Positions 22,962-64,000 of a DNA stretch of 64,000 nucleotides are shown one piece after another. The position numbers and the translations under genes are program-made. The notes below the pieces were generated by a model. It was not told the DNA's origin. It saw nothing but the letters and a program-made list of their open reading frames with translations, and did not search any database. Source of the DNA: a virus. The stretch is from IMG/VR virus record IMGVR_UViG_3300028802_000007, positions 1 through 64,000 of that record; one strand, given 5' to 3'. How positions within the stretch are numbered: position 1 is the stretch's first letter; each line of letters opens with the position of its first letter.

Positions 22962-23775
22962 GGCCAAGACGCAGTCCCTCGCCGCCAAGCTGGCGGAGAT
23001 CATGGGCCAGATGAAGCACGTCAAGAAGGAGGGCTTCAACAAGGCCCAGAACTACAAGTTCGTCCGCGAGACGGACGTCGCCGAGATGGCGTCGGAGCTC
23101 CTCGCGGCCAAGGGCATCTGGGTCCACCAGACGCTCATCGCGGAGGACATGGAGCCCCTGTACACGACCAACTCGGGGGCCCAGATGTGGCTGACCAAGG
23201 TCCAGATCGCGTTCAAGTTCATCGACGGCGCGACCCTCGAGGAGACCCTCCCGCAGACCTTCAGCGGGCACGGTGCCGACACGGGCGACAAGGGCATCTA
23301 CAAGGCCATGACCGGCGCTGAGAAGTACTTCCTGATGAAGTCCTTCCTGATCTCGACCGGTGACGACCCTGAGGCCGACGAGAAGGTGGACAAGGCCGCC
23401 GACGCTGCCGGTGCCGCAACCGCTCCCCGGGTGGTGCGCGGATCGCAGTCCGGCGTCCAGCGCGGAGGCCGCTCCGACGCTGCCACAGCCGCTCAGGTCA
23501 ACGAGGTGGCCCGCTTGGTCAAGGAGTTGAACCTGACTGCCGAGACGGCCCTGCCCATCATCCAGGCCGTTCTGGGCGAGATCCCGGCGGATAAGCAGAA
23601 CATGCGCGACTTCCTCGGATCGAAGAAGTCGGCTGAGGTCGGCAAGCTCATCGAGGCGCTCATGGAGTTCAAGCCCGTCGAGAAGGCGGTCGCGGGCGGC
23701 GACCAAGCGGATCTCGAGGCTCGCGAAGGTCTGGACCTCCGCGACGAGCCCCCGGCGGCCATGGCGGTCGTCTAG
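22954..23775 (+). CDS. erf: ERF-family single-strand annealing protein
   Basis: The 273-residue protein matches ERF recombinases. An N-terminal helical start QSLAAKLAEIMGQMKHVKK is followed by the family core, VQIAFKFIDGATLEE and the diagnostic DKGIYKAMTGAEKYFLMKS before ISTGDDPEAD. The middle is a flexible Ala/Gly/Arg linker, and the C-terminus holds a small helical domain (VARLVKELNLTAETAL). ERF anneals complementary single strands for recombination and genome circularisation. AAGGAGGTCACC precedes the ATG inside the end of the nuclease gene. Confidence 0.9.
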   Translation: MPEAKTQSLAAKLAEIMGQMKHVKKEGFNKAQNYKFVRETDVAEMASELLAAKGIWVHQTLIAEDMEPLYTTNSGAQMWLTKVQIAFKFIDGATLEETLPQTFSGHGADTGDKGIYKAMTGAEKYFLMKSFLISTGDDPEADEKVDKAADAAGAATAPRVVRGSQSGVQRGGRSDAATAAQVNEVARLVKELNLTAETALPIIQAVLGEIPADKQNMRDFLGSKKSAEVGKLIEALMEFKPVEKAVAGGDQADLEAREGLDLRDEPPAAMAVV

Positions 23776-30932: not shown

Positions 30933-31390
30933 TCGTCGCGATCGCCGGTAGCCGCCGCCTCCCTCGAGGCCAAGCTCCACGCCTCCTGATCCGCTTCCTC
31001 GACAACCTCGAGGAGGGCGACCGGGTCATCGTCCGCACGCCCAAGCACGGGCCCCCCGGGCCCTTCGAGCACGATGTCATGGCGCTGTGCGAGATCCTGG
31101 ACATCACGGTCGAGACCCTGTCGCCGGCTCCGACCATCACCACACCCGGTCGAGCGTCGGTGTACTTCCGTGACATCGAGATGGTCGAGCACGCCGACCT
31201 CGTCCTGCTCTTCTTCACGCCGGAGGAGGCGGTCGAGGGCTACAGCGGCACCGCCCACCTGATGGACAAGGCGCTCGACGCGGATCGTCCGGTGTACGCC
31301 TACACGGTGGGAGCCGACGGTCTGGTGTGCCGGGTGGGAGAGCATGACCCCGACGACCTGTTTGCTGGCCGAGTGCCGTTCGTACCTTGA
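30929..31390 (+). CDS. SLOG/YspA-like Rossmann protein
   Basis: The 153-residue product begins MIVAIAGSRRLPRG, the GSR loop of SLOG (YspA/LOG/DprA-like) proteins. It then has DRVIVRTPKHGPPGPFEHDV, a later YFRDIEMVEHADLVLLFF and GYSGTAHLMDKALD, which fit the R-x(n)-D and GT-x(n)-A nucleotide-binding elements. SLOG domains bind or sense nucleotide-derived ligands and are frequent in conflict systems. It is the last gene before the Y RNA array; the array's -35 box overlaps its stop codon. Whether it works with Ro is unknown. Confidence 0.6.
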   Translation: MIVAIAGSRRLPRGQAPRLLIRFLDNLEEGDRVIVRTPKHGPPGPFEHDVMALCEILDITVETLSPAPTITTPGRASVYFRDIEMVEHADLVLLFFTPEEAVEGYSGTAHLMDKALDADRPVYAYTVGADGLVCRVGEHDPDDLFAGRVPFVP

Positions 31391-31416
31391 CATGATGGTG
31401 GCACGACCACTATCGT
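31387..31416 (+). promoter_or_regulatory. Promoter of the Y RNA-Ro unit
   Basis: TTGACA at 31387-31392, 18 bases, then TATCGT at 31411-31416 (four of six to TATAAT). The expected start, six or seven bases after the -10, is 31422-31423, exactly where the terminal stem of the first RNA begins. This is the strongest promoter match in the window. Confidence 0.65.
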
Positions 31417-31421
31417 TCGCC

Positions 31422-31495
31422 GTCTGCGGTGCGAAGCTCAGGGTTACTCCGTTGCTTGAAACGACAAACACCTTGGGCGTCTTGTCCTCGCAGAT
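31422..31495 (+). ncRNA. Y RNA-like RNA 0 (no tRNA-like module)
   Basis: Terminal stem GTCTGCG (31422-31428) pairs with CGCAGAT (31489-31495). Inside lie the shared internal-loop strands GTGCG (31429-31433) and GTCCT (31484-31488). A second stem pairs GCTCAGGGT with ACCTTGGGC (nine pairs, two wobbles), and a short hairpin (31451-31465) caps it. The 74-base RNA lacks T- and D-arms. It begins at the predicted transcription start and shares the GGGTTACT motif (31441-31448) with the other RNAs. Confidence 0.75.
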
Positions 31496-31504
31496 AACTG
31501 AATA

Positions 31505-31655
31505 GGTGACGGTGCGTAGGCCGGGGTTACTTCAGGATCTTTGTGTCGCGGGTTCGAGTCCCGCCGGACTGGCTAGGGAGTTCGCTCCCCATGGTCCGTA
31601 GCTCAGCGGTAGAGCAAAAGACAAACGGTTCCTCGTCCGACCAGTCCTCGTCGCC
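31505..31655 (+). ncRNA. Y RNA-like RNA 1 with permuted tRNA-like module (YrlA type)
   Basis: Terminal stem GGTGACG (31505-31511) with CGTCGCC (31649-31655); internal loop GTGCG (31512-31516) and GTCCT (31644-31648). The core is tRNA-like but permuted: T-arm GCGGG-TTCGAGT-CCCGC (31548-31564), acceptor strand CGGACTG (31565-31571), a GGGAG-TTCG-CTCCC cap (31576-31589), acceptor strand TGGTCCG (31592-31598; all seven pairs form, two wobbles), TA, then D-arm GCTC-AGCGGTA-GAGC (31601-31615). The anticodon arm is replaced by the Ro-binding stem. This is the layout known for bacterial YrlA RNAs. Confidence 0.85.
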
Positions 31656-31662
31656 AATAACC

Positions 31663-31808
31663 GTGCTGATGGTGCGACAGAAGGGGTTACTTCCCTTTCG
31701 TAAAGGTGAGGTCCCAGGTTCGAGTCCTGGTCGGGGTTCCGCAAGGTCCCCCGGTAGCTCAGTTGGCAGAGCGCATTGTGTCCTCTTCGATCTGGTTCTC
31801 ATCGGCAC
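31663..31808 (+). ncRNA. Y RNA-like RNA 2 with permuted tRNA-like module (YrlA type)
   Basis: Terminal stem GTGCTGATG (31663-31671) with CATCGGCAC (31800-31808), nine pairs; internal loop GTGCG (31672-31676) and GTTCT (31795-31799). T-arm CCAGG-TTCGAGT-CCTGG (31714-31730), acceptor strand TCGGGGT (31731-31737), a GCAA tetraloop cap (31741-31744), acceptor strand CCCCCGG (31748-31754, six of seven pairs), TA, D-arm GCTC-AGTTGGCA-GAGC (31757-31772). An extra hairpin (CTTT-CGT-AAAG, 31695-31705) sits in the 5' arm. The helix next to the internal loop has a bulged C (31678), a feature known from Ro-binding stems. Confidence 0.85.
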
Positions 31809-31817
31809 TACATCAAC

Positions 31818-31919
31818 GTCAGCGGTGCGCTGATCGGGGCTACTTCTTGGATCGAACACCGGCTTGCCGGTGGAGGGTTTCGACCACCCTCTGACCTCGG
31901 ACACCTAGTCCTCGCTGAC
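31818..31919 (+). ncRNA. Y RNA-like RNA 3 in the Ro mRNA leader
   Basis: Terminal stem GTCAGCG (31818-31824) with CGCTGAC (31913-31919), seven perfect pairs; internal loop GTGCG (31825-31829) and GTCCT (31908-31912). The core holds the GGGGCTACTTC motif (31836-31846), hairpin CACCGG-CTTG-CCGGTG (31857-31872) and a T-arm-like hairpin GAGGGT-TTCGACC-ACCCTC (31873-31891). No D-arm. It ends 21 bases before the Ro start codon and ten before its AGGAG, so it may work as a free RNA or as a leader element. Confidence 0.75.
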
Positions 31920-31940
31920 ACAAACCGACAGGAGACTTGA

Positions 31941-33515
31941 ATGGTCAAGCTCGCTGCCCGCACGAAGCGGGCTCCCACCGCGCCGGTCAAGACCACGAAG
32001 GGCCGGAAGCCGGACACCATCACCGCGAACGCTGGTGCTGGGTTCAGTCGCGATGCCAAGTCGGAGCTGTTCCTCCTCGCGGTGACCAACATGGTCAGCG
32101 AGGACACCTTCTACGAGCGCGGCAAGAACCGTGACAAGCGGTTCGTGGACCTCATCCGTCAGGTCGCCCTCGAGGACGCCGACTGGATCGCTCGCCTCGT
32201 CCCGTACCTGCGCGACACCATGAACATGCGATCCGCCAGCATCGTCATGGCCGCCGAGCTCGTCCACGCCAAGCTGACCCGGCCCGTGGCCGCGTCCAAG
32301 ATCAGCAACCGCACCATCATCGACTCCGCCATCAAGCGGGCCGACGAGCCGGCGGAGATGCTGGGCTACTGGATGAGCGAGTGGGGCAAGACCTTCCCGC
32401 AGCCGGTGAAGCGCGGCGTCGCCGACGCTGTCGTGCGCCTGTACAACGAGCGCAGCCTGATCAAGTACGACGGTGGCGACAAGGCCATCCGCTTCGGCGA
32501 TGTCATCGACCTCACCCACCCGGAGGCCAAGGCCCCGTGGCAGTCGAGCCTGTTCAAGTACGCCCTCGACGACCGCCACAAGCGGGACATGCCCCTGCCG
32601 TGGTCGGCGGAGGCAGCGCCGCTGCCGACGGTGCAGGCCAACCGCAACGCGATGATGCTCGACCAGGAGACGTTCCGGGCCTTCTTCTCCGCCGACTGGG
32701 TGGAGAACGCGGGCCTGACGTGGGAGCAGGCGTCGTCCAAGTACGGCAAGCTCGACGCGAAGTTCTGGGAGGCGATGATCCCGAACATGGGCATCTTCGC
32801 CATCGTGCGGAACCTCCGCAACTTCAGCGATGCCGACATCAGCACGGCCACCCAGGATCTGGTGCGGGCCAAGCTGTCGGACGAGGAGGCCATCCGCAAG
32901 TCGCGGATGTTCCCGCTCCGGTTCATGGCCGCGTACACCGCGACCAAGAGCCTGACCTACGCCCGCGAGCTCGAGGTCGCCATCGACACCGCCACCTCCA
33001 ACGTGCCTGCCCTCAAGGGCAAGACGCTGGTGCTGGTGGACGTGTCCGGCTCCATGGACGCTGCCCTGTCGGCCAAGTCCGACGTGAAGCGGTTCGCCGT
33101 GGCGTCGGTCTTCGGCGCGGCTCTCGCGATCCGTGCGGAGGACGCGGACCTCGTGGCGTTCTCGGACACCACAGCGGTCATCCCGACCCGCAAGGGTGAC
33201 TCCGTGCTGGTGACGGCCAACGCCATCCTCCAGGCCCTGCCTCACGGCGGGACCCAGACGTGGCAGTCGGTTCAGCGGACCTTCAAGGGTCACGACCGGA
33301 TCGTCATCATCACCGACGAGCAGGCCGACATGGGCTACACCGCCGGGTCCATCCCCGACGGGGTGAAGCTGTACACCTTCAACGTGGCTGGCTACCGTGT
33401 CGGCCACGCGCCTTCGGGCAAGAAGGACAAGTACACGTTCGGCGGGCTCACCGACGCGGCCTTCACCGCGATCGAGCTGCTCGAGCGGGGAACCGACCAG
33501 ACCTGGCCGTTCTGA
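31941..33515 (+). CDS. rsr: TROVE/Ro60 protein (Rsr)
   Basis: The 524-residue protein has a TROVE domain (about 30-345; IPNMGIFAIVRNLRNF at 280-295 is the family signature) forming the HEAT-like ring that binds Y RNA and the ends of misfolded RNAs. A von Willebrand A domain follows, with an intact MIDAS: DVSGSMD (367-373), GGTQT (436-440) and ITDEQ (457-461). In bacteria Rsr with Y RNA joins exoribonucleases in RNA decay and survival under stress. AGGAG is six bases before the ATG. The upstream array of four Y-like RNAs makes a full phage Ro-Y RNA system. Length matches cellular homologues. Confidence 0.95.
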   Translation: MVKLAARTKRAPTAPVKTTKGRKPDTITANAGAGFSRDAKSELFLLAVTNMVSEDTFYERGKNRDKRFVDLIRQVALEDADWIARLVPYLRDTMNMRSASIVMAAELVHAKLTRPVAASKISNRTIIDSAIKRADEPAEMLGYWMSEWGKTFPQPVKRGVADAVVRLYNERSLIKYDGGDKAIRFGDVIDLTHPEAKAPWQSSLFKYALDDRHKRDMPLPWSAEAAPLPTVQANRNAMMLDQETFRAFFSADWVENAGLTWEQASSKYGKLDAKFWEAMIPNMGIFAIVRNLRNFSDADISTATQDLVRAKLSDEEAIRKSRMFPLRFMAAYTATKSLTYARELEVAIDTATSNVPALKGKTLVLVDVSGSMDAALSAKSDVKRFAVASVFGAALAIRAEDADLVAFSDTTAVIPTRKGDSVLVTANAILQALPHGGTQTWQSVQRTFKGHDRIVIITDEQADMGYTAGSIPDGVKLYTFNVAGYRVGHAPSGKKDKYTFGGLTDAAFTAIELLERGTDQTWPF

Positions 33516-36142: not shown

Positions 36143-37723
36143 CTACGCCGTGCGGGCTTGGCAGTACACGGTTATTCCGCCGGCTGGGGCCGACGTAAGC
36201 GTGAACGAGGCGGCGTCAGGATCGGTCTCGACGAAGGCCACACCCTTGACCAGCGGGGTCATCGTGCCGCCCGATCCGGTGTAAACCTGAAGCGTGCCCG
36301 GGATGTACGGCGGGACGATGTGGAAGAGGGTGCGGCTGCCGTTGGCGGCCTCGACCGCCTCGTCCGCGTAGTACGAACCGTACGGGTAGGAGTCGGACGT
36401 GGCGTCGGTCCCGACGACCGGCTGGGGCTGGGGCTTCGGGCGCATCTTGCGGAGGAACTGCCACCACCAGACGGGGTCCGACATCTGGAGGCCGAACGTG
36501 CCCTCGAACTGGACGAAGGTCACCGGATCGTTGTCGGGGTTGTCCGATGGCAGGGTCGGGAAGGTGATCTTCACCTGACGGAGCGGGACGTTGATGGTGT
36601 ACGGCGTGGCTCCGTTGTCCTCGCTGAAGGACCACAGGTTGAGGGTCGTGACCATGCCCGGGATGAGCTGCTGTCGCTCGCCGCCGGAGATCGGCACGTC
36701 GTGGCTGAACCACGTCAGGACGAACTGGCGATCGGGGTTGACCAGGCCCTGCGCTCCTGTCACGGGCGACGTGCCAGAGGTGGAGCCGCTGATGAGGGCG
36801 TTGGCTCGAGCGGTCACCTCAGCCGAGCTCTTGAAGCGGTCCTCGCCCGGGTGGTTCTCGGCCAACTGCCAGCGACCGTTGTCGGTGATGCTGGTCGCGT
36901 TGCTCTTGTGGGCCATCACGATGGTGCCGTTGGTACCGATAGGCGATCCGCCCCAGATGAAGACCTCGTTGATGACCGACGTGCCGTCGTCGGTGACGGT
37001 GCCGTCACGCCAGCCGATGAAGCTGGTGCCGTCGGGGATGTCGCTGAAGCCCCACGGTGCGGCGGTCGTCTGGAGGGCCAGCCAGTTGAGGTTGGCTCCG
37101 CCGTCCACCCAGTAGATGCAGGCGAGCTGGCCGTGGATCGTGGTCTCGATGACGAGCGAGTCGAGGACCGCACGCATCGTCTCGCCCTGGCTGGGCCAGA
37201 CGTACTTCACGGTGAAGTCGTTGACGTGATCGACCTTGGTGGTCACATCGAGCGTGCCGCCACCACTGAAGCCCAGATCGAAGTACTGCGCGTAGAGGGC
37301 GATGATGTGCTTGTCGTTGCCGTTGGCACCGACGCCGACCGACGGGATGATGTGGGTGTAGTCGGTGGTCCGGCGGAGGACGCGCTTGTCGAGCAGGTGG
37401 TTGTAGTCCACCCCGTCGAGCTGCCATCGGCGACCGGTCACGGGTTCTGACGTGTCGAGCGCCGGAAAGAAGAAGTCGCGGGTGACCTGAGTCACGAAGC
37501 CGCCGAACATCTGGACGGTGCCCAAGGTCATCTCGAGCCTGCCACCCGTGACGAACGAGTGGGTCTGGTTCGGGTCCTTGACCGTGATGTGGAAGGACCC
37601 GGGAACCGCCGCAGCTTGGAGCTCGAAGTAGGCGTCGATGTAGGTGCAGGACGTGGTGATGTCAGTCGTCGTGCCCGACGGGTCGATGTAGATGATGGTG
37701 ATGTCTTCGGGCACCTTGCTCAT
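36143..37723 (-). CDS. Tail-tip/baseplate protein
   Basis: The 526-residue product shares a domain with the giant protein encoded upstream: GVDYNHLLDKRVLRR here and GGDYNRFLDKRIL there, plus NEVFIWGG versus NDAIVWGAGKG and NGRWQLAEN versus HGRWQYGNF. This domain type occurs in phage distal-tail/baseplate hub proteins. The C-terminal 80 residues form a separate beta domain (GTLQVYTGSGGTMTPL). It overlaps the end of the giant gene by four bases and is expressed with the tail operon. Confidence 0.8.
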   Translation of the reverse strand: MSKVPEDITIIYIDPSGTTTDITTSCTYIDAYFELQAAAVPGSFHITVKDPNQTHSFVTGGRLEMTLGTVQMFGGFVTQVTRDFFFPALDTSEPVTGRRWQLDGVDYNHLLDKRVLRRTTDYTHIIPSVGVGANGNDKHIIALYAQYFDLGFSGGGTLDVTTKVDHVNDFTVKYVWPSQGETMRAVLDSLVIETTIHGQLACIYWVDGGANLNWLALQTTAAPWGFSDIPDGTSFIGWRDGTVTDDGTSVINEVFIWGGSPIGTNGTIVMAHKSNATSITDNGRWQLAENHPGEDRFKSSAEVTARANALISGSTSGTSPVTGAQGLVNPDRQFVLTWFSHDVPISGGERQQLIPGMVTTLNLWSFSEDNGATPYTINVPLRQVKITFPTLPSDNPDNDPVTFVQFEGTFGLQMSDPVWWWQFLRKMRPKPQPQPVVGTDATSDSYPYGSYYADEAVEAANGSRTLFHIVPPYIPGTLQVYTGSGGTMTPLVKGVAFVETDPDAASFTLTSAPAGGITVYCQARTA

Positions 37724-40700
37724 GGGAGGGCTCCGTTCGTGATGTAGGCCATTGTGACGTCGGCGCTCTCCGTCAAGGCTGCGTGCATCGTGATGAGACC
37801 GAAGTCGTCAGCGGTCAGGGTCCACGCCGATCCGCTCTGGAGGATGCCGTTGACGCTGACGAGGGCCGTCCCGGTCAGGATGGAGTTGGTCGCCTGCCAC
37901 AGGGAGTTCACCGGGTACGAGCCGCCCGACGGGGTGTCCAGCGGGGTCAACACGTCGTTCAGCAGGTGCGTGCCTGACGGCACGGAGCCGGGGCCTGACG
38001 GCGGGATGACGGTACAGGTCCCGACTTGGATCTCGCCGATGTTCGTGGTCCCGCTCGTCGCCCCGTTCTGGTTGACGAGGTAGACCCGGTTGTAGTTGTA
38101 GTGCAGCGAGTCGATGGCAACCGCCGCGCCCGCTGGCTTGCTCCCTGCCGAGTCGGGCCAGACGGTGAGGATGCCTGCTGACCCGTCGTACTCGGCGGTG
38201 TACCACGCGCCCGCGATCCAGGAAGAGCCACCTCCGACGTCGGCGAGGCTGAGCGTAAAGATCTGGGCCTGCACGGTCATGCGGATGGTCAGGCCGCCGC
38301 TTGGAGAGAACTGGAAGTACATCTCGATCCACCCGAAGCCCAGCGTGTTCTCGATCCTGAGCAACCACTGGGTGGAACCGCTGCCTCCACCGTTCGGGAG
38401 AGCGGTCGCCATGAGCCGCATGCTCAGGGTGAACCCCGGGTTGGCGAAGGGGACCACGTTCGAGTTGTAGTAGCCAGCGACGCCCAGGCTCTCGGCGAAG
38501 AAGGACGCACCGTTCACGCCGCTGTTCCCGCCACCGACGAACTGGGTCGTATACGCCGTGCCAGACGAACTCGTCCCGATCGTGTTCGTGCTGGTGGTCC
38601 GGTTGAAGTTGTCCCAGACGTAGACGTCAGCGCAGTTGGAGCCGCAGGGCATCCCCTCGTAGTCGAAGCCGATGGGTCCCCAGAAGGTGTCGGTGGTGTA
38701 GTTGGAAGACGACTGAGTGTTGAACCGCGTGTAGCCACCAGTCACGCCAGCCTGCGTCAACTCGACCATCCAGTCGGCGGGCTCGCTCGTGCCCCACCAG
38801 ACCTTGCCCCGACTGACGCTGGCGCTGTACTCCCACTTCAGGTTGATGTTGACGTTGGTGGGCACGTCGGGAATGCCCACAGAGGCAGAGCCCGCACCTG
38901 CCACGGCGAGCTGGAGCTCGCACCCAGCAGGGCTGATCTCCAAGGTCATCCTCCGCTCGCCGCCGGGGACCGGGGAGAAGGGGGCGCTGATCTGCTGGAC
39001 GACGAGACTGAACGCCACTGCGTGGCTACCGAAGGCTGTGCCGTATCGGATGAAGGTCGTACAGGTGAAGTCGTCTCGGAACGGGGCCGCGAAGACCGAG
39101 CCACTGTCTGGGATGTAGGCCATCACGGAGTTAGTGGTGCCACCGCTGTTGAGCGGGACTGCCGCGATCCCGTTCGATACAGCGATGCTGGGGTCACCCG
39201 AACCGTTCACCCACGCTGGACCGCCTTGACTCGGAATGCCCCAGCCGCCCGTCACGACGCGCTGGAAGTTGTCGAAGTTGGACCCGGAACAGGCGCTGAT
39301 GCCGTTGATGTTGAGCTCGTACAGCCGGACGGTCTGGCCGATGTTGGGCAGGAAGAACCAGAAGGTGTTCAGGGGCATCCCGGTGAAGGCCGTGCTCCCA
39401 CAGTCGAGCATGAAACCGGCGGGCTCCGACGCACCCTCCGCCCAGACGTTGGCCTGGACCTGACCACCAGTGATGACCATGTGGAAGTTCCAGATGCCGT
39501 CGTAGGCCAAGTAGGCGGCACCCGTGTTGATGCTGTCACTGACGGCTCCGCCACCCGCATCACTTCCGTACACGGCCCAGTACCCGTCGCCGCCGTCCTT
39601 GTCGATCCAGAAGTCGAAGCCCATATAGTCGTTGAAGAGTTGCGGATTGCCCTCGGACCAGTAGAACTGCGGCTGGGCGTTGTGGTCACCCTCCGTCGTC
39701 GTGTTGGCGATGGACATCTGCCACGTCATATCAACCGCAGACAGGCCCAGGCTGTCCAGCATCATCGTGATGTCCGACCCGCCTGAGCCTGTGTTCTGGG
39801 CCTGCTCAGGGTTGGCCTCAGCGAAGCCGCTGTACACACGGGTGGCACGGTTGATGGCATCGATCTCGTACTGAAGCTGCCCGGGCCCTGCCACCCACAC
39901 CCTGCCGGAGTCGCTCGTGGCCCAGCCACTCACCACAGAGCGGCTGAAGGTGTCGGTGATGCCGCAGTCAGCTTCGGTGCAGCCGGTCTCCTCCTGACCA
40001 CCGACCGGGAGGGGCGTCCCACCGCCACCGCCCAGACCCGGGTAGCCGGTCGGCAACCACGGATCGAACATGCTCCAGACCGCGTCGATCTCCCAACTCA
40101 ACTGGAGGGTGAAGAGCGGGTCGTCCGGCGTCGGCCAGGTGATGGTCATGGTGCGGATCGGGAGGACATCGTCGTGGGTGTCAGGAGCTCCCGGGTAGGC
40201 GGGCGGCATGTAGAACTGGGAGTTGTGGATGTTGACCACGTCGCCGACCGCGAAGACCGGCTCGTAGGTGCGAACCTCGATCGAGCGCATGGGGTTCTTG
40301 GCACCGCGCAGCGAGGCAGGGGAGCCCTCGACAGCCGCTCGAGCCACGGCGTTGGCGGTAGCCTGCTTGTAGATGCCGGAGGTGAAGTTGCCGTACTGCC
40401 AGCGGCCATGGTCGCTCTGGCTGGGGGCACTCTGGTAGCGGGACTTGACGATCTGATTGCTGCCCTTGCCAGCGCCCCAGACGATCGCATCGTTGATCAT
40501 CTCGGTCGCGTCCTCGACGATCCGCGCCTCGCGGTAGCCCACGTCCATCGCGCCCGACGGAGTGTCGGTCAGGGTGTACGGGCTGCTGACGAGGTCGGCA
40601 TCGACGTAGGTCACGACCTTCTGCGGGGTGACGTAGAAGATGGCTCCCGTGTCCCACGACAGGTGGAGCAGCACGTCTCGCAACGTGAAGCCACCTTGGG

Positions 40701-43700
40701 CCACGTTGCCACCGGTCTTGGCCGTCACGCCCTTGATGTCGAGGACGCCCTGACCGACGTGCTGGAAGTTCTTGGTGAAGCCGTCGGTGTCGAAGAACGG
40801 CCAGAGGTTGTTGAGGATGGTGTTGTCGGCGGTCCCAGCGGCGTAGTCCCACGTCCTGCCCGGGTGGGCAGAGTCGTGGAGGATGCGCTTGTCGAGGAAG
40901 CGGTTGTAGTCGCCGCCGACGATGTGGAAGATCCGGGCATCACTCAGCGGGGCCTTCTGGACCGGGAAGGGGAACGCTCTGGTGACCAGCAGGACCCAGC
41001 CGGCCCAGCGCAGGATGCCGCCGATGTAGAGCTCGATCACGTCGCCGGTCTCGAAGGTCAGGTCGTGGTCCTGGTCCACCACGTCGAACTCGCACTCACC
41101 GGTCTGGGCGTTGGTCTTGGCGCTGAACTTGGCCGTCTTCCAGATGACGTGGCCTCGAGACATCTCGACGCCGTTGATGTAGATGCGGGTCGGCACACCG
41201 GTCAGCGGCAGCGTCCCGTTGCCTCCGCCGGACCCACCGCCACCGCCAGATCCGCCACCGCCCCCGGTGCCCGGGATGAACCAGTTGTAGTCGATGGTGA
41301 ACGAGGGCTGGTACGTCAGGTTGATGAGGGCGTTGGCGGTGAAGGTGCCACCGAAGGTGTAGGCGAAGCGGGCGTCAGCGGTGAACGACCCGGTGCGGGT
41401 GCTCTTGAAGAGCGCGTTCGCCGTGAACGTGCCCGTCCGACTGGCCCTGATGGTGGCAGAGGCCCTGAAGTAGCCCTGCGTGATGAAGGCGTCGGCGGTA
41501 TAGGAGCCCGTCCTCGAGGCCTTGATGACGGCCCTGGCCGTGAACGAGCCGGTGCGGGTCGCTCTGATGTAGGCGTCGGCGGTGAAGCGCCTGCTGGCGA
41601 TGACCGCGTTGAGCAGGACTCTGTTGGGGGTGATGCCATAGAGCGCGAAGTTGTCGATCTTGCTGACTTCGCTACCCTCAGGGGAGTAGTAGAAGTCGAG
41701 GAAGGGAACCCCGTTGTTGACCGGGCCCACCTTGTCGTTCATCCGACCCGACGTCAGCGGCGACGACGGCCTCGCAGAGCCGACCTTCCAGACGCGCATC
41801 TCGACGTTCTGGAGAGCGTCGTAGACGAGCTCCGCCGTGTACCACGAGCTCGCATCCAGCGCGAGGGTGGCGTCGGGCACGTTCGGGGAGAAGGACCACT
41901 GACTGGTGCCGACACGCCAGTCACCGGACGTACCGTCCGCCGCGACGTACATGTAGACCGGAGTCGAGGGGTCGTCGAGGTTGATGCCGTACGCCGGGTG
42001 GGCGTTGGACTGGCTCGCCAGCGGCGGCACCCAGAAGTCGAACTGGACGGAGCCTGCTGTCGGACGCGCCCCGAAGCGCCACGACGAGTAGTTGTAGTCG
42101 GCTGGGTGGCCCGTTGGGTGAGCCGGCAGGACGATGCTCGCCCCATCGACGAAGACGTTGTCTGCCGACGACGTGGAGGTGTACGAGTCGTCGTTCGACC
42201 AGACCCACGGAGCCCCAAGCGATCCTGTCCCGGGCCCGACCGACCGGTTGAAGTCGTCACTGAGGACGACCGCGAAGGACTGGGTGATGGTGGCGAGGCG
42301 GATGGCGTCGGCGGTGAAGTAGCCACCGCTTGGGATCTTCAGCCAGGCGTTCGCCGTGAACGAGGCGGTGACGCTCTTCTTGATGGTCGCCGACGCGGTG
42401 TAGGAGCCGGTGCTGATGATCTTGATCCACGCAGACGCCGTGCGCGATCCGGTCTGGGTTCGGAAGCGAACCGCGTTCGCGGTGTACGAACCGGTCTGGG
42501 TGCGCTTGCGGATCGCGTCCGCCGTGAAGGTCGCGGTCTGGGTGCGCCGGGTGAAGGCATCTGCCGTGAACGAGCCGGTGCGGGCGGCGAAGATGACAGC
42601 GTTGGCGGTCAGACTCGAGGTCTGGTTCCGCAGGACGACGGCATTCGCCGTGTACGACCCGGAGCGGGTGACACCGATGACAGCGTTGGCCGTGAAGGAA
42701 CCGGATCGGCTGGCGCGGATCACGGCGTTGGCGGAGAAGGAGGACGCCCCGGACACGAAGAGCTGGGCGTCGGCGGTGAAGGACCCGGCCCGGGTCGCCT
42801 TCAGGACGGCATTCGCGGTCAGGGAACCAGTGACGGGCCTGAGGAGGAACGCGTCCGCCGTGAAGGAGCCAGTGGCAGTGCGCTGGATGACCGCGTCGGC
42901 TGTCGTCGATCCGGTGCGGGTCGCCTTGACCACGGCGTTCGCCGTGAAGGAGCCAGTGCGCGTGGCCTTGATCAGGGCGGCTGCGGTGAAGCTCCCCGTG
43001 CCCGTCGCCTTCAGGATGGCGTTCGCGGTGAAGGTGCCACCCGGGCCCACGCCAGTGCTGATGTAGGCATCGGCGGTGAGGTTCAGCGGCTTGGCGATGA
43101 ACGAGGCACCGATGAGGGCCTTGCGGTTCGCGGCACCACCGGTCGAGCCGATGGTGTACGAGCCTGAAGCAGCCGTCGCGATCTGGTAGTTGACCCCGAT
43201 GGGCGGACGACCGCCGGACTCGAAGTCCTCCGTCATGGAACCAGCCGGGGTCATGCCGACCGGGACGGTGTCGTTCCTCTGGAGGAGGCCGCTGACGAGG
43301 AGGATGACGTCGGCGAGGCCCGGGGTGATGGACTGCGTGCCAGCGGTGGTGAACGAGGACGTCCCGACGAAGGTGTCGAACGCCTTGATGTTCGAGAACT
43401 CCATGACGTCGAACGCGACGTTGTTGGCAGTGCCCGACCAGGTGACCGTGGTCGTCGCCGACAGCGATGTCGTGACGAACTGGTACCACATCACGATGGG
43501 CCAGTCGCCCGCCGTGACACCCGTGTACTCGCGGTCGATCTGTGTCCACGTCCCGTTGTTCAGGGACGCCGTCTCCGCCGTGACGCCGTTCCGCTTGGCG
43601 GAGGCCGCGACGAGGAGGTTGCCGATGGTCGGCGTGGCACCTAGCGTGATGGAGACGTTGGCCGACGCGGTGCCGCTGGACCCGTTGCTCTGGACCTTCG

Positions 43701-43953
43701 TGGCCGCCGTCTGGGAAACCGTCTTGAGGACGGCGTTGGCGGTGAAGGAGGCAGACGTGCCCAGCACCTTGATCACCGCGTTGGCGGTGAAGACGTTGAA
43801 GATCCTTGGGGCTAGGACCTCGACGGCAAGCTGAGTGACCCGGGCGTTGGGTACGCCGTTCTCGAGGGTCTCGGCTGCAAGCTGTGTGACTCGAGCGTTT
43901 GGAGTGCCTAGCTCGAGTGCCTCGATGGCGGCCTGCGTGACGCGGGTCGCCAT
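37720..43953 (-). CDS. Giant tail protein: repeats, baseplate-hub domain, lectin-like domains
   Basis: The 2077-residue protein is modular. Residues 1-60 have three RVTQLA(A/V)E units; about 85-290 a beta domain; about 300-560 copies of a 14-residue unit (GSFTANAVVKATRT). Next comes a LamG/concanavalin-like domain starting SDDFNRSVG (about 570-770), more repeats, and a Gly/Ser linker at about 900. A baseplate-hub domain like 36143-37723 lies at about 910-1310. Three further DxFxR-type lectin-like domains (DTFSRSV, DNFQRVV, DNFNRTT) and a C-terminal beta domain complete it. It probably forms the tail tip and binds host surface sugars. Confidence 0.85.
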   Translation of the reverse strand: MATRVTQAAIEALELGTPNARVTQLAAETLENGVPNARVTQLAVEVLAPRIFNVFTANAVIKVLGTSASFTANAVLKTVSQTAATKVQSNGSSGTASANVSITLGATPTIGNLLVAASAKRNGVTAETASLNNGTWTQIDREYTGVTAGDWPIVMWYQFVTTSLSATTTVTWSGTANNVAFDVMEFSNIKAFDTFVGTSSFTTAGTQSITPGLADVILLVSGLLQRNDTVPVGMTPAGSMTEDFESGGRPPIGVNYQIATAASGSYTIGSTGGAANRKALIGASFIAKPLNLTADAYISTGVGPGGTFTANAILKATGTGSFTAAALIKATRTGSFTANAVVKATRTGSTTADAVIQRTATGSFTADAFLLRPVTGSLTANAVLKATRAGSFTADAQLFVSGASSFSANAVIRASRSGSFTANAVIGVTRSGSYTANAVVLRNQTSSLTANAVIFAARTGSFTADAFTRRTQTATFTADAIRKRTQTGSYTANAVRFRTQTGSRTASAWIKIISTGSYTASATIKKSVTASFTANAWLKIPSGGYFTADAIRLATITQSFAVVLSDDFNRSVGPGTGSLGAPWVWSNDDSYTSTSSADNVFVDGASIVLPAHPTGHPADYNYSSWRFGARPTAGSVQFDFWVPPLASQSNAHPAYGINLDDPSTPVYMYVAADGTSGDWRVGTSQWSFSPNVPDATLALDASSWYTAELVYDALQNVEMRVWKVGSARPSSPLTSGRMNDKVGPVNNGVPFLDFYYSPEGSEVSKIDNFALYGITPNRVLLNAVIASRRFTADAYIRATRTGSFTARAVIKASRTGSYTADAFITQGYFRASATIRASRTGTFTANALFKSTRTGSFTADARFAYTFGGTFTANALINLTYQPSFTIDYNWFIPGTGGGGGSGGGGGSGGGNGTLPLTGVPTRIYINGVEMSRGHVIWKTAKFSAKTNAQTGECEFDVVDQDHDLTFETGDVIELYIGGILRWAGWVLLVTRAFPFPVQKAPLSDARIFHIVGGDYNRFLDKRILHDSAHPGRTWDYAAGTADNTILNNLWPFFDTDGFTKNFQHVGQGVLDIKGVTAKTGGNVAQGGFTLRDVLLHLSWDTGAIFYVTPQKVVTYVDADLVSSPYTLTDTPSGAMDVGYREARIVEDATEMINDAIVWGAGKGSNQIVKSRYQSAPSQSDHGRWQYGNFTSGIYKQATANAVARAAVEGSPASLRGAKNPMRSIEVRTYEPVFAVGDVVNIHNSQFYMPPAYPGAPDTHDDVLPIRTMTITWPTPDDPLFTLQLSWEIDAVWSMFDPWLPTGYPGLGGGGGTPLPVGGQEETGCTEADCGITDTFSRSVVSGWATSDSGRVWVAGPGQLQYEIDAINRATRVYSGFAEANPEQAQNTGSGGSDITMMLDSLGLSAVDMTWQMSIANTTTEGDHNAQPQFYWSEGNPQLFNDYMGFDFWIDKDGGDGYWAVYGSDAGGGAVSDSINTGAAYLAYDGIWNFHMVITGGQVQANVWAEGASEPAGFMLDCGSTAFTGMPLNTFWFFLPNIGQTVRLYELNINGISACSGSNFDNFQRVVTGGWGIPSQGGPAWVNGSGDPSIAVSNGIAAVPLNSGGTTNSVMAYIPDSGSVFAAPFRDDFTCTTFIRYGTAFGSHAVAFSLVVQQISAPFSPVPGGERRMTLEISPAGCELQLAVAGAGSASVGIPDVPTNVNINLKWEYSASVSRGKVWWGTSEPADWMVELTQAGVTGGYTRFNTQSSSNYTTDTFWGPIGFDYEGMPCGSNCADVYVWDNFNRTTSTNTIGTSSSGTAYTTQFVGGGNSGVNGASFFAESLGVAGYYNSNVVPFANPGFTLSMRLMATALPNGGGSGSTQWLLRIENTLGFGWIEMYFQFSPSGGLTIRMTVQAQIFTLSLADVGGGSSWIAGAWYTAEYDGSAGILTVWPDSAGSKPAGAAVAIDSLHYNYNRVYLVNQNGATSGTTNIGEIQVGTCTVIPPSGPGSVPSGTHLLNDVLTPLDTPSGGSYPVNSLWQATNSILTGTALVSVNGILQSGSAWTLTADDFGLITMHAALTESADVTMAYITNGALP
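42270..43085 (-). repeat. 42-bp tandem repeats encoding 14-residue units
   Basis: About 18 imperfect copies of a 42-base unit encode G-S-F-T-A-N/D-A-V-I/V-x-x-x-x-T on the minus strand; a shorter array lies at about 41300-41610 in the same gene. The protein pattern is conserved while the DNA copies have diverged. The same unit recurs about 60 times at 60.7-63.4 kb. Confidence 0.85.
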
Positions 43954-60352: not shown

Positions 60353-60537
60353 ACGCTCCCTCGCACGAACTCGAGGAGGCCCACGACGATGCCGATGGGC
60401 CAGGCCCACGTCCCAAGGAAGTCACCGACAGACGTGATGACCTCGACGTGGATGGCGGGCAGGACGACCGACAGGAGCAGGCAGATGAGCCCAGCGACGA
60501 AGCCGACGGCCACTGCCCGGATCACTCGGTTGAGCAT
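60349..60537 (-). CDS. Two-span membrane protein, 62 residues
   Basis: Two hydrophobic helices (AVAVGFVAGLICLLLSVVL and AWPIGIVVGLLEF) in 62 residues, holin-like in shape. ATG overlaps the giant gene stop (TGATG). Virion or lysis role unclear. Confidence 0.6.
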   Translation of the reverse strand: MLNRVIRAVAVGFVAGLICLLLSVVLPAIHVEVITSVGDFLGTWAWPIGIVVGLLEFVRGSV

Positions 60538-63500
60538 CAAACGACCTCCGCATCGAGAGTGAAGTACGACCGGCGCGTCCAGAACCAGGTGAAGTCCATG
60601 GTCCTCGCAGACAGGCTGGGCGCGATGGTCGCCGCGCTCAGGCTGCCCTCGATGGTCCCGGCTGTGGTCGTCCCGGCGATGGTGTCCGCCGTGGTGGTGG
60701 ACTCAATCTCCTGGACGATGTGCCGACTGATGGACGCATCGACGGTGAAGTTGCCGTAGCCCGGACCCGTGATCTGGGCGTCGGCGGTGAAGGACCGCTG
60801 ACCAGCCGCCCCAACGGACGCATCCGCCGTGAACGAGCCAGCCCTTCCGGCCTTGATGATGGCGCGAGCGGTGAACGACCCGGTGCGGACGATCCGCAGC
60901 AGGGCGGATGCCGTGAAGGTCCCGGTCCGGGTCCGCTGGATGACCGCATCGACGAGGAACGTGCCGCCTGCCACGAAGAGCGTGACGTAGGCGTCTGCCG
61001 TGAGCGATCCAGTTCGGAGGGTCGCGATGACAGCGTTGGTGGTCACCCCGCCCGTTCGGGTGGCCCTGATCACCGCATTGGCGGTCAGGGAGCCAGTCGC
61101 TGTTCGCTTCGCGATGGCGTTCGCCGTGAACGAGCCGACCGAGCTCGAGCGCAGGACCGCGTCGGCCCGCATCGTAGCAGACCGCGTGGCACGCACAATA
61201 GCGTCCGCGCTGAATGCGGCGGTGGTTCCGCCAGCGATCCACGCAGCCGCTGTGAAAGTGCCCGTGCTCGTCCGCTTGACTACAGCGTCGGCGACGAAGG
61301 TCCTATTGAAGCTGGCCTTGATAACGGCGGATGCCGTGAACGAGCCCGACCGGCTGGCGAGGACGACGGCGTTGGCCGTGTAGGACCCCGACCGGGTGGC
61401 CTTGATGGTCGCGTCAGCGGTGTACGCACCAGTGCGCGTCGCGAGGATCAGGGCGTTGGCGACGAAGGTGCCTGTGCGGGTTGCCTTGATGACCGCGTCG
61501 CCCTTGAACGAGCCAGCGCCGGCTGTCGGGGAGATGATCCAGGCGTCTGCGGTGAAGGAGCCCGCGAAGGTCCGCCGGATGACGGCATCGGCGGTGAAGG
61601 ACCCGGCCCTCGTGGCCTTGATGACCGCGTTCGCGGTCGTCGAGCCGGTCTGGGACCGCAGGATGAGGGCGGAAGCGGTGAACGAGCCCGCTCGAGTCGC
61701 CTTGATGACCGCATTGGCGCTGAACGAGCCGCTGAACGTCTTCAGCAGCAGGGCGTTGGCCGTGAACGATCCGGTGATGCTCAGGCGCAGGACGACGGCG
61801 TTGACCGTGAACGTCCCGGTCTGGTTGAGCCGCAGGACGATCGCGTTCGCCGTGAACGAGCCTGTTCGAGTGGCCTTGAGGACGGCGTCAGCCGAGAACG
61901 CCCCGGTAGCGGTCCGCTTGACGACGGCAGAGGCGGTGAAGCTGCCGGTGAACGTGGCCCGGATCACGGCGTTGGCCGTGTAGGACCCCGACGCCGTCCT
62001 CAGGATGACCGCGTTGCCAGTGAAGCTACCGGTCAGGGTCTTCTTGATGGCGGCGGAGGCGAGGAAGGCCGCCACACCAACCCCGCCGATCCACGCATCA
62101 ACGGTGTACGTCCCTGTCTGGGTGCGCTTGATGACGGCGTCGGCCCGGAAGCGCGGCATGATGACCGCGTTGGCCGTGTAGGCACCCGTCTGGGTCCGCT
62201 TCAGGACCGCATCCGCCGAGAAGCGCGGCATGATGACGGCGTTGACCGTCAGCGATCCGGCTTGGGTTCGGAAGATGACCGCGTTGGCTGTATACGACCC
62301 CGTCCGGGTCGCCTTGATGGCGGCATCGGCGGTCAGGGAGCCCGTGCGGGTCGCCTTGACGACCGCGTCAGCGAGGAACGTCCCCGTCCGGGTGGACTTG
62401 AGGACAGCGTTGGCCGTGAAGGAGCTCGTCGCGGTCCGGGCCAGCACGGCGTTGGCCGTGAAGCTGCCCGTCTGGGTCCGCAGGATGGTCGCGTTGCCGG
62501 TGAACGAGCCGGATCGGGTCGCGAAGATGACCGCGTTGGCCGTGTACGACCCGCTGATGGTCGCCTTGATCAGGGCAGAGGCGCTGAACGAGCCGGTCAG
62601 GGTCGCCTTGACAACGGCATTGGCAGTGAAGCTGCCGGTGCGCGTGATCTGGACCCAGGCCGACGCCGTGAACGCTCCGGCGATGGTCTTCTTGATGACC
62701 GCATCGGCGGAGAGGGAGCCGGTGCGGGTCAGCCGGATGACCGCGTCTGCGGTGAAGCTCCCGGTCCTCGTCGCCTTGACGACCGCGTTCGCCGTGAAAC
62801 TCGACGTGATGGTCGCCTTGACCACGGCGTTGGCTGTGAAGGTGCCCGTCCGGGTCACGACGATGAGGGCGTTGGCCGTGAAGCTGCCCGTCGCGGTCTT
62901 CAGGACCACCGCATTGGCGGTGAAGGACCCAGTCCTGGTGGACTTGAGAACCGCGTCGGCTGCGAACGAGCCGGTGCGGGTGCTCTTGATGACCGCGTTT
63001 GCCGTGAACGTCCCCGTCTGGGGGCGCAGGATCAGAGCCGATGCCGTGAAGCTTCCGGTGCCGGTCTTCAGGAGGACGGCGTTGGCTGTGTAGCTGCCCG
63101 TGCGTGTGCTCTTGATGGCCGCGTCGGCCTTGAACGAGCCCGTGATGGCCGCCTTGATGACAGCCGCTGCGGTGAACGATCCGGGCTGGGGCCGCAGGAT
63201 GAGAGCGGCTGCGGTGAAGGACCCGGTCTGGGTGCGGAGAACCACCGCGTTGGCAGTGAAGGTGCCGGTTCGAGTCGCCTTCAGGACAGCGTTGGCGGTG
63301 AAGGAACCCGTGACTGTCCGCACGATCGCGGCGTTGGCCGTGAACGAGCTCGAGATGGTCGCCTTGACCACCGCGTTGGCTGTCAGCGAGAAGGCGGTGT
63401 CGGCGACGAAGTAGAAGTCGAAGGCGGTGTCTTCAGCCGACCAGATCGACAGGTTCCAGATGCTCGTGCCGCCGCCCGCGTACACAGACGTGGTGTACAG

Positions 63501-64000
63501 ACCGGCGTTGTAGTACTTGCCGCTGTCGGTGGCACCGGACCGACTGAAGACGATCCAGTACTTCGTCCCACTGACCAGCGGGAGAGCGACGGTCGAAGTG
63601 GTGAGGACCGTGAGGGTCGTGGAGAGCTGGCCTGCGGCGACCGACGCGATGGAGCCGATGAGGGAACCCGGAGTCGAGCCCGCGCTCGACCAGAGCTCGA
63701 CCTCGACGGTGTCCGCCGGAGCTCCCGTCCTCGAGAGCATGTAGGAGACACGCCACAGGCTGCCGGTGGCACCTGCCGTGAAGGCCTGCGCCACCTTGGT
63801 GAAGTCGGAGATGTTCCCGAAGGCGATCGCGGTCGGGTCCAAGCTGAACGAGACCGCAGACAGCTCGTTGACCGACTGGGTCTTCTTCAGGATCGCGTTG
63901 GCCGTGAAGGTGCCGGTCCGGGTGATCTGGACCCAAGCGGCAGCGGTGTAGGAGCCAGCGATGGTCTTCTTGAGAACGGCATTGGCCGTGAACGTCCCGG
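60537..64000 (-). CDS. Giant 14-residue-repeat protein, 5' end beyond right edge
   Basis: The frame is open to the right edge: upstream of codon TTG at 63842 it continues with further repeat text (GTFTANAVLKKTIAGSYTAA), so the true start lies outside. At least 1153 residues are seen. There are repeats at the extreme N-terminal part, then a beta domain (about 63400-63840; SDFTKVAQAFTAGATGSLWR), about 60 tandem 14-residue units, and a C-terminal Thr/Ala-rich domain with EIESTTTADTIAGTTTAG. The unit (x-T-G-S-F-T-A-N-A-V-I-K-A-T) probably folds as a beta-solenoid or linear fibre. It is cotranscribed with head genes, so a virion fibre or decoration is likely. Confidence 0.85.
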   Translation of the reverse strand, partial: GTFTANAVLKKTIAGSYTAAAWVQITRTGTFTANAILKKTQSVNELSAVSFSLDPTAIAFGNISDFTKVAQAFTAGATGSLWRVSYMLSRTGAPADTVEVELWSSAGSTPGSLIGSIASVAAGQLSTTLTVLTTSTVALPLVSGTKYWIVFSRSGATDSGKYYNAGLYTTSVYAGGGTSIWNLSIWSAEDTAFDFYFVADTAFSLTANAVVKATISSSFTANAAIVRTVTGSFTANAVLKATRTGTFTANAVVLRTQTGSFTAAALILRPQPGSFTAAAVIKAAITGSFKADAAIKSTRTGSYTANAVLLKTGTGSFTASALILRPQTGTFTANAVIKSTRTGSFAADAVLKSTRTGSFTANAVVLKTATGSFTANALIVVTRTGTFTANAVVKATITSSFTANAVVKATRTGSFTADAVIRLTRTGSLSADAVIKKTIAGAFTASAWVQITRTGSFTANAVVKATLTGSFSASALIKATISGSYTANAVIFATRSGSFTGNATILRTQTGSFTANAVLARTATSSFTANAVLKSTRTGTFLADAVVKATRTGSLTADAAIKATRTGSYTANAVIFRTQAGSLTVNAVIMPRFSADAVLKRTQTGAYTANAVIMPRFRADAVIKRTQTGTYTVDAWIGGVGVAAFLASAAIKKTLTGSFTGNAVILRTASGSYTANAVIRATFTGSFTASAVVKRTATGAFSADAVLKATRTGSFTANAIVLRLNQTGTFTVNAVVLRLSITGSFTANALLLKTFSGSFSANAVIKATRAGSFTASALILRSQTGSTTANAVIKATRAGSFTADAVIRRTFAGSFTADAWIISPTAGAGSFKGDAVIKATRTGTFVANALILATRTGAYTADATIKATRSGSYTANAVVLASRSGSFTASAVIKASFNRTFVADAVVKRTSTGTFTAAAWIAGGTTAAFSADAIVRATRSATMRADAVLRSSSVGSFTANAIAKRTATGSLTANAVIRATRTGGVTTNAVIATLRTGSLTADAYVTLFVAGGTFLVDAVIQRTRTGTFTASALLRIVRTGSFTARAIIKAGRAGSFTADASVGAAGQRSFTADAQITGPGYGNFTVDASISRHIVQEIESTTTADTIAGTTTAGTIEGSLSAATIAPSLSARTMDFTWFWTRRSYFTLDAEVV
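60727..63395 (-). repeat. About 60 tandem 42-bp repeats
   Basis: Imperfect 42-base units run almost without break through 2.7 kb, and resume at 63843-64000. DNA identity between copies is partial while the amino-acid pattern (T-A-N/D-A at fixed spacing) is kept, pointing to selection on the protein. Occasional units carry one to three extra residues or a deletion (MPRFSADAV, MPRFRADAV). Confidence 0.9.

What the first reader, a model, noticed from the sequence alone, without database searches (positions are those of the whole stretch)
31422..33515. A complete phage Ro-Y RNA system with four tandem Y-like RNAs
Four RNAs (31422-31495, 31505-31655, 31663-31808, 31818-31919) directly precede a TROVE/Ro60 gene with intact MIDAS. 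Each is closed by its own different but fully paired terminal stem, followed inside by GTGCG on the 5' strand and GTCCT (GTTCT in one) on the 3' strand. Stems differ in sequence yet pair, which is covariation within one locus. Bacterial rsr genes are known to have Y RNAs beside them, usually one or two; an array of four types upstream of a phage rsr is unusual. The phage may use it to steer RNA decay or RNA repair.
Basis: partly seen in the sequence, partly recalled or inferred. Interest (0 to 1): 0.95.

Follow-up and report, generated by a model that had tools for sequence, protein, structure and literature searches.

The report
Phage Ro protein with four Y RNAs
This phage carries its own Ro ring protein together with a row of four small structured RNAs, two of which imitate transfer RNA; the row is real and conserved, and is one case of a layout that turns out to be common in actinobacterial phages and their hosts, though database annotation largely misses it.

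Summary
Covariance models built without window sequence recover all four: RNA1 E=2e-12, RNA2 8e-22, RNA3 5e-24, RNA4 2e-5. The gene at 31941-33515 is a Ro60/TROVE protein by sequence and fold. All four RNAs share a two-helix basal module, presumably the Ro-binding site. RNA2 and RNA3 carry a permuted tRNA (T arm, closed acceptor stem, D arm) like bacterial YrlA; RNA1 is compact; RNA4 carries a hairpin plus a T-arm-like hairpin. A sigma-70-type promoter match sits just upstream of RNA1. Four is not unusual: 77 bacterial Ro loci carry 1-5 (mostly 2-3), viral loci up to 7. Y RNAs in phages are already reported. What seems new is the general architecture: tandem arrays mixing three size classes, missed at Rfam's cut-off and in six phages annotated as tRNAs. 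Function (PNPase tethering, decoy, other) is inferred. RNA repair has no support here: no RNA ligase or RtcB was found.

The parts
31387..31416 (+). Sigma-70-type promoter match, TTGACA - 18 nt - TATCGT, 5 nt before RNA1; the sister phage has TTGACA - 18 nt - TATTGT at the same place
   Evidence: 10 of 12 matches; 0.3 such sites expected by chance in the 3.2 kb scanned; sister sequence
31422..31495 (+). RNA1, compact Y-like RNA (74 nt): outer stem GTCTGCG/CGCAGAT, internal loop, inner helix GCTCAGGGT/ACCTTGGGC; no tRNA-like part
   Evidence: CM R3 E 2e-12; CM R1 E 9e-8
31505..31655 (+). RNA2, tRNA-like (YrlA-type) Y RNA (151 nt): outer stem GGTGACG/CGTCGCC
   Evidence: CM R2 E 8e-22; Rfam YrlA 39.1 bits, below its cut-off of 69
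31548..31564 (+). RNA2 T arm, GCGGG-TTCGAGT-CCCGC
31565..31598 (+). RNA2 acceptor-like stem CGGACTG/TGGTCCG, closed by an inner hairpin instead of free CCA ends
   Evidence: 5 of 7 pairs changed on both sides in the sister phage
31601..31615 (+). RNA2 D arm, GCTC-AGCGGTA-GAGC
31663..31808 (+). RNA3, tRNA-like (YrlA-type) Y RNA (146 nt): outer stem GTGCTGATG/CATCGGCAC
   Evidence: CM R2 E 5e-24; Rfam YrlA 31.5 bits
31714..31730 (+). RNA3 T arm, CCAGG-TTCGAGT-CCTGG
31757..31772 (+). RNA3 D arm, GCTC-AGTTGGCA-GAGC; the acceptor-like stem lies between T and D arms (31731-31754)
31818..31919 (+). RNA4, mid-length Y-like RNA (102 nt): outer stem GTCAGCG/CGCTGAC; inside, hairpin 31857-31872 and T-arm-like hairpin 31873-31891
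   Evidence: CM R2 E 2.3e-5, basal module only
31930..31934 (+). Shine-Dalgarno-like AGGAG, 6 nt before the Ro start codon
31941..33515 (+). Ro60/TROVE protein (524 aa): alpha-solenoid plus vWA domain with complete MIDAS motif

Best explanation
A phage-encoded Ro ribonucleoprotein system. One transcript from the promoter at 31387-31416 probably carries four Y RNAs and the Ro message, separated by 7-9 nt spacers (21 nt before Ro) and presumably cut into single RNAs. Each RNA docks on the phage Ro protein through the same basal module (outer stem, an internal loop with GUGCG on the 5' side and GUCCU or GUUCU on the 3' side, inner helix) and presents a different outer part: nothing (RNA1), a permuted tRNA (RNA2, RNA3) or a hairpin plus T-arm-like hairpin (RNA4). 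The outer parts act as adaptors that bring a host RNA enzyme, most likely the exoribonuclease PNPase as in Deinococcus Rsr-Y RNA-PNPase, to Ro, so that the phage can direct turnover or quality control of structured RNA during infection; the compact RNA may only occupy and gate the Ro ring. Shown here: the RNAs, their conserved structure, the Ro protein, the linkage and the promoter match. Inferred: cotranscription, processing, binding to Ro (about 0.9), adaptor role of the tRNA-like parts (about 0.6), PNPase as the partner (about 0.4).
For: In 40 tRNA-like relatives RNAalifold gives outer stem (10 bp), inner helix (7), T arm (5), acceptor (7) and D arm (4), with 26 of 33 pairs changed on both sides in at least one sequence; in 40 compact relatives the same two basal helices, 11 of 15 pairs. 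The inner helix, not used in selection, covaries above all 500 shuffles. RNA2 of the two sister genomes differs by compensatory changes in 5 of 7 acceptor pairs. 67 of 80 viral loci picked by the RNA motif alone hold Ro in the fetched DNA; 5 of 8 of the rest that were tested hold TROVE elsewhere on the contig. Ro fold matches D. radiodurans Rsr 2nvo, Thermus phage phiLo Ro60 9l5y and Ro-RNA complex 1yvp. Precedents: Rsr-Y RNA-PNPase and YrlA modification by DusA/TruB (PMC8394870, PMC7790460); in Listeria phage CKA15 the Rsr homologue is found in particles and three abundant RNAs map upstream (PMC12282133).
Against: No transcript, processing or binding data exist for this phage. RNA2 is not unusually stable in isolation (z -0.3). 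RNA4's inner part has only a degenerate T-loop. PNPase binding is extrapolated from distant bacteria, and no PNPase contact was tested. The model of Ro rests on six sequences (pLDDT 77, pTM 0.65). The link from the basal module to the experimentally mapped Ro-binding site of animal Y RNAs is a resemblance from memory.
Confidence: 0.6

Rival explanations
1. tRNA decoys: Ro-bound tRNA mimics occupy host or defence enzymes that act on tRNA (anticodon nucleases, modification or decay enzymes), protecting phage translation.
For: RNA2/RNA3 keep the T loop TTCGAGT and a D loop with GG, and lack an anticodon and free acceptor ends. For Salmonella, authors suggest YrlA may inhibit an anticodon nuclease competitively (PMC7790460). 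Several Ro phages carry many tRNAs next to Ro.
Against: Compact RNAs without tRNA parts occur in most mixed arrays and would be pointless as decoys. The window's record has no tRNA genes. Actinobacterial chromosomes carry the same arrays.
Confidence: 0.2
2. Cis-acting leader: the four structures form a 5' UTR through which Ro regulates its own mRNA, and no separate RNAs act in trans.
For: Array and Ro appear cotranscribed, with 21 nt between RNA4 and the start codon.
Against: In Streptomyces phage Kela an RNA ligase gene lies between array and Ro. In Arthrobacter phage Atuin such RNAs lie on both sides of Ro; in L147 they lie only downstream. The tRNA-like parts are conserved beyond what a leader needs.
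Confidence: 0.1
3. RNA repair or tRNA maintenance: the Ro-Y particle presents broken RNAs to a ligase.
For: rsr-yrlBA-rtcBA operons in bacteria (PMC7790460); Kela has an RNA ligase gene beside Ro; a jumbo-phage survey groups TROVE with RNA repair (PMC7824862).
Against: No RNA_ligase or RtcB match in the 130.9 kb record and no tRNA genes. Host enzymes could still be used.
Confidence: 0.09
4. Decayed tRNA gene cluster without function.
For: Weak Rfam tRNA hits of 18-20 bits overlap RNA2 and RNA3.
Against: The order T arm - acceptor - D arm is permuted; covariation is strong in relatives and between sister phages; ARAGORN finds no tRNA.
Confidence: 0.01

Closest known systems
Bacterial Rsr-Y RNA system (Deinococcus radiodurans Rsr-Y RNA-PNPase; Salmonella rsr-yrlBA-rtcBA)
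   Same: Ro60-type protein next to Y RNA genes; a basal stem for Ro plus a tRNA-like effector module (PMC8394870, PMC7790460)
   Different: Phage-borne; four RNAs of three classes in one array; no rtcBA
YrlA RNA, Rfam RF02553
   Same: RNA2 and RNA3 align to the tRNA-like core (39.1 and 31.5 bits, E 5e-7 and 7.5e-5)
   Different: Below the curated cut-off of 69; longer acceptor hairpins; the matches leave out the basal part; RNA1 and RNA4 do not match it
Phage Y RNAs reported before (mycobacteriophages, cited in PMC12282133 from Chen et al. 2014; 'several phages', PMC7765460; one Mycolicibacterium prophage YrlA, PMC8190616)
   Same: Phage-encoded Y RNAs
   Different: The texts I could read do not describe mixed tandem arrays or the compact and hairpin+T-arm classes; Chen et al. 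2014 itself was not available to me
Listeria phages P100/CKA15 Rsr-like protein with upstream RNAs
   Same: TROVE-like gene directly preceded by three tandem units with different closing stems and a shared internal motif
   Different: DUF2828/DUF7788 protein, different motif, no match to my models at that place
Thermus phage phiLo Ro60 (PDB 9l5y)
   Same: Phage Ro60 protein, among the best fold matches
   Different: No Y RNA array found beside it; one weak hit, E 0.011

Membership tests
Ro60/TROVE (Rsr) protein | TROVE alpha-solenoid plus vWA domain | tested here: met
   Pfam TROVE E 2e-15 over its cut-off; PDB sequence match 9l5y 2.5e-26; fold matches 9kop, 9l5y, 2nvo, 1yvp at E 1e-16 to 1e-12
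Ro60/TROVE (Rsr) protein | MIDAS metal site DxSxS...T...D | tested here: met
   D367, S369, S371, T438, D459 invariant in 10 phage Ro proteins
Ro60/TROVE (Rsr) protein | Binds Y RNA and misfolded RNA | not testable with these tools
   Needs binding or pull-down experiments
YrlA (RF02553) | tRNA-like core of T arm, acceptor stem, D arm in permuted order | tested here: met
   RNA2 and RNA3 only
YrlA (RF02553) | Score at or above Rfam's gathering cut-off (69 bits) | tested here: not met
   39.1 and 31.5 bits; so filed as YrlA-like, not as Rfam YrlA
YrlA (RF02553) | tRNA-like core present in RNA1 and RNA4 | tested here: not met
   RNA1 has no T or D arm; RNA4 has only a T-arm-like hairpin
YrlA / bacterial Y RNA | Gene next to rsr | tested here: met
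   RNA4 ends 21 nt before Ro; linkage holds in relatives
YrlA / bacterial Y RNA | Tethers PNPase | not testable with these tools
   No host or partner data
Phage and actinobacterial Ro-linked RNA module described here | Outer stem, GUGCGNAG-type internal loop, inner helix ending near GGUUACUUC | tested here: met
   All four RNAs
RNA repair operon | RtcB or RNA ligase nearby | tested here: not met

The most novel reading that the evidence does not exclude
Actinobacterial phages and their hosts run a modular Ro particle: one ring protein is loaded from a tandem array of interchangeable RNAs of three classes (compact, hairpin + T arm, full permuted tRNA), each recruiting a different host factor. 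Phages have expanded these arrays (up to at least 7) to reprogram RNA handling during infection.
Probability: 0.3. Interest if true: 0.8.

Novelty: new variant of a known kind. Interest (0 to 1): 0.55.

Why it matters
Bacterial Y RNAs have been studied in very few species, and what phages do with Ro is unknown. The locus shows that Ro comes with a mixed set of RNAs sharing one docking module, in phages that already have laboratory hosts (Streptomyces lividans, Gordonia), so adaptor function can be tested RNA by RNA. It also offers covariance models for classes that Rfam misses, and explains six annotated phage 'tRNA' genes beside Ro as probable pieces of Y RNAs.

Tried and rejected
Rfam at gathering cut-offs found nothing in the window and ARAGORN no tRNA. 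Model R1 (basal module without inner part) missed the long RNAs, probably because its expected match length is too short; full-length models R2 and R3 solved this. The degenerate tRNA reading was rejected on the permuted order and covariation. The 'four is unusual' claim was rejected on counts in relatives. The idea that the phage has two Ro genes was rejected: bases 407-56368 are colinear with 75349-130935 at an offset near 75 kb, so the record is two related genomes in tandem, most likely a strain-chimeric assembly. Orphan arrays without Ro: three contigs (L253 23 kb, L248 37 kb, L208 6 kb) have such RNAs and no TROVE match, but they may be fragments. A head-module protein gave no relative in the phage collection, so host and phage group stay unassigned. 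Counts of arrays lean on a profile trained on viral modules, which can undercount: in L001 it finds four where model R2 finds five, and bacterial arrays may be undercounted more. The outer-stem pairing in alignment A1 was part of the selection, so only the inner helix and the tRNA-like arms count as free covariation evidence there.

Full report
What is there. The window lies in a 130,935-base virus record. Genes for a portal protein, a head protein, a head maturation protease and an ERF recombinase mark it as a tailed phage. Between a short gene ending at 31390 and the Ro gene starting at 31941 lie about 550 bases without a convincing protein gene. This stretch holds a promoter-like site, TTGACA-18-TATCGT at 31387-31416, and four structured RNAs in tandem separated by 7-9 bases. 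The last one ends 21 bases before the Ro start codon, with AGGAG in between.

Independent proof of the RNAs. I collected Ro loci from phages and viral contigs and aligned 35 basal modules without any window sequence. Covariance models from 40 long relatives (R2) and 40 compact relatives (R3), again without window sequence, give RNA3 E 5e-24, RNA2 8e-22 and RNA4 2e-5, and RNA1 2e-12. E-values are rough because calibration was short. RNAalifold on the long relatives gives a clear structure: outer stem, internal loop, inner helix, T arm, acceptor stem, D arm, with 26 of 33 pairs showing changes on both sides. The compact relatives share only the two basal helices.

Sister genome. The record contains a second, related genome (bases 75349-130935 colinear with 407-56368) whose Ro is 82% identical in protein and is preceded by five such RNAs. 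The first four correspond in order to those of the window, with the same or nearly the same outer stems. RNA2 and its counterpart differ by compensatory changes in five of seven acceptor pairs and one of five T-arm pairs. The promoter hexamers and two of the spacers are conserved. This is strong evidence of selection on structure.

Classes. Over about 180 loci these RNAs fall into three size groups. RNAs of 60-89 nt almost never have tRNA parts (142 of 145). RNAs of about 95-125 nt often have a T arm only. RNAs of 130-170 nt mostly have T arm, acceptor and D arm. Of about 158 arrays of two or more, 108 combine a compact and a tRNA-like RNA. The window has compact, tRNA-like, tRNA-like, mid.

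The protein. Pfam TROVE, sequence match to a phage Ro60 in the PDB, and a predicted model whose best fold matches include Ro60 of Thermus phage phiLo, D. radiodurans Rsr and animal Ro. MIDAS residues are invariant among relatives. In a tree of 96 Ro proteins the window's Ro and its sister sit in a group of 12 made up only of viral contigs and the window's record (support 85-96), with arrays of 1-7 RNAs.

How unusual. In 77 bacterial Ro loci, almost all actinobacterial, the number per array is 1:7, 2:26, 3:34, 4:9, 5:1; viral loci reach 7. Four or more occurs in 23 of 72 viral and 10 of 77 bacterial loci (Fisher p 0.006; related sequences are not independent, so this is only suggestive). So the array is typical, and at the upper end.

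What is known. Bacterial Y RNAs tether Rsr to PNPase, and YrlA mimics tRNA (PMC8394870, PMC7790460). Y RNAs were found by computation in mycobacteriophages (stated in PMC12282133, citing Chen et al. 2014). A Listeria phage makes three abundant RNAs upstream of an Rsr-like gene, whose product is also found in virions (PMC12282133); in the related phage P100 I see three tandem units of the same plan directly upstream of the probable counterpart gene; whether these are the abundant RNAs of that study was not checked. I found no text describing mixed tandem arrays in phages, but the key papers by Chen, Sim and Wolin were not held.

Mechanism. The most likely reading is a phage Ro particle with exchangeable RNA adaptors. 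The docking step follows from the shared module and the steady linkage to Ro; the adaptor step from the tRNA-like parts and the Deinococcus precedent; PNPase as partner is a guess of moderate strength. A cis-acting leader is unlikely because in other phages the RNAs lie behind another gene, on both sides of Ro or only downstream. RNA repair has no local support.

Noticed in passing
G000 407-56368 versus 75349-130935: The 130.9 kb record is two related genomes of about 75 kb in tandem (70-86% identical, colinear), probably a strain-chimeric assembly rather than one phage with two Ro genes.
   Followed up: yes
L017 2751-2825, L020 2756-2829, L023 2641-2712, L025 2694-2784, L027 2711-2778, L028 2068-2135: Six annotated phage tRNA genes beside Ro (phages GiJojo, Alone3, VanLee, Frankenweenie, 10KY502B, CcrColossus) lie within or overlap Y RNAs, so they are probably misannotations.
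   Followed up: partly
L031 about 23150-23440, minus strand (Listeria phage P100): Three tandem units with different closing stems and a shared CAGCAATTACTA-type motif directly upstream of gp165 (DUF2828/DUF7788): a parallel array in a Firmicutes phage.
   Followed up: partly
L028 1650-2860 (Caulobacter phage CcrColossus): Seven to eight Y-like RNAs upstream of Ro, the longest such array among isolated phages seen here.
   Followed up: partly
L019 4713-5300 (Arthrobacter phage Atuin): Y-like RNAs fill unannotated gaps between tRNA genes downstream of Ro as well as upstream.
   Followed up: no
L253, L248, L208: Viral contigs with Y-like RNAs but no TROVE match on the contig: possible orphan Y RNAs that use a host Ro, or fragments.
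   Followed up: partly
L024 2190-2942 (Streptomyces phage Kela): An RNA ligase gene lies between the Y RNA array and Ro, a hint of RNA repair in that phage group.
   Followed up: no
window 37720-43953, 60537-63842: Large minus-strand genes; the first is a 2077-aa protein with many 'SFTANAV'-type repeats, and DNA repeats link this region with about 61-63 kb and with 64-66 kb of the record.
   Followed up: no
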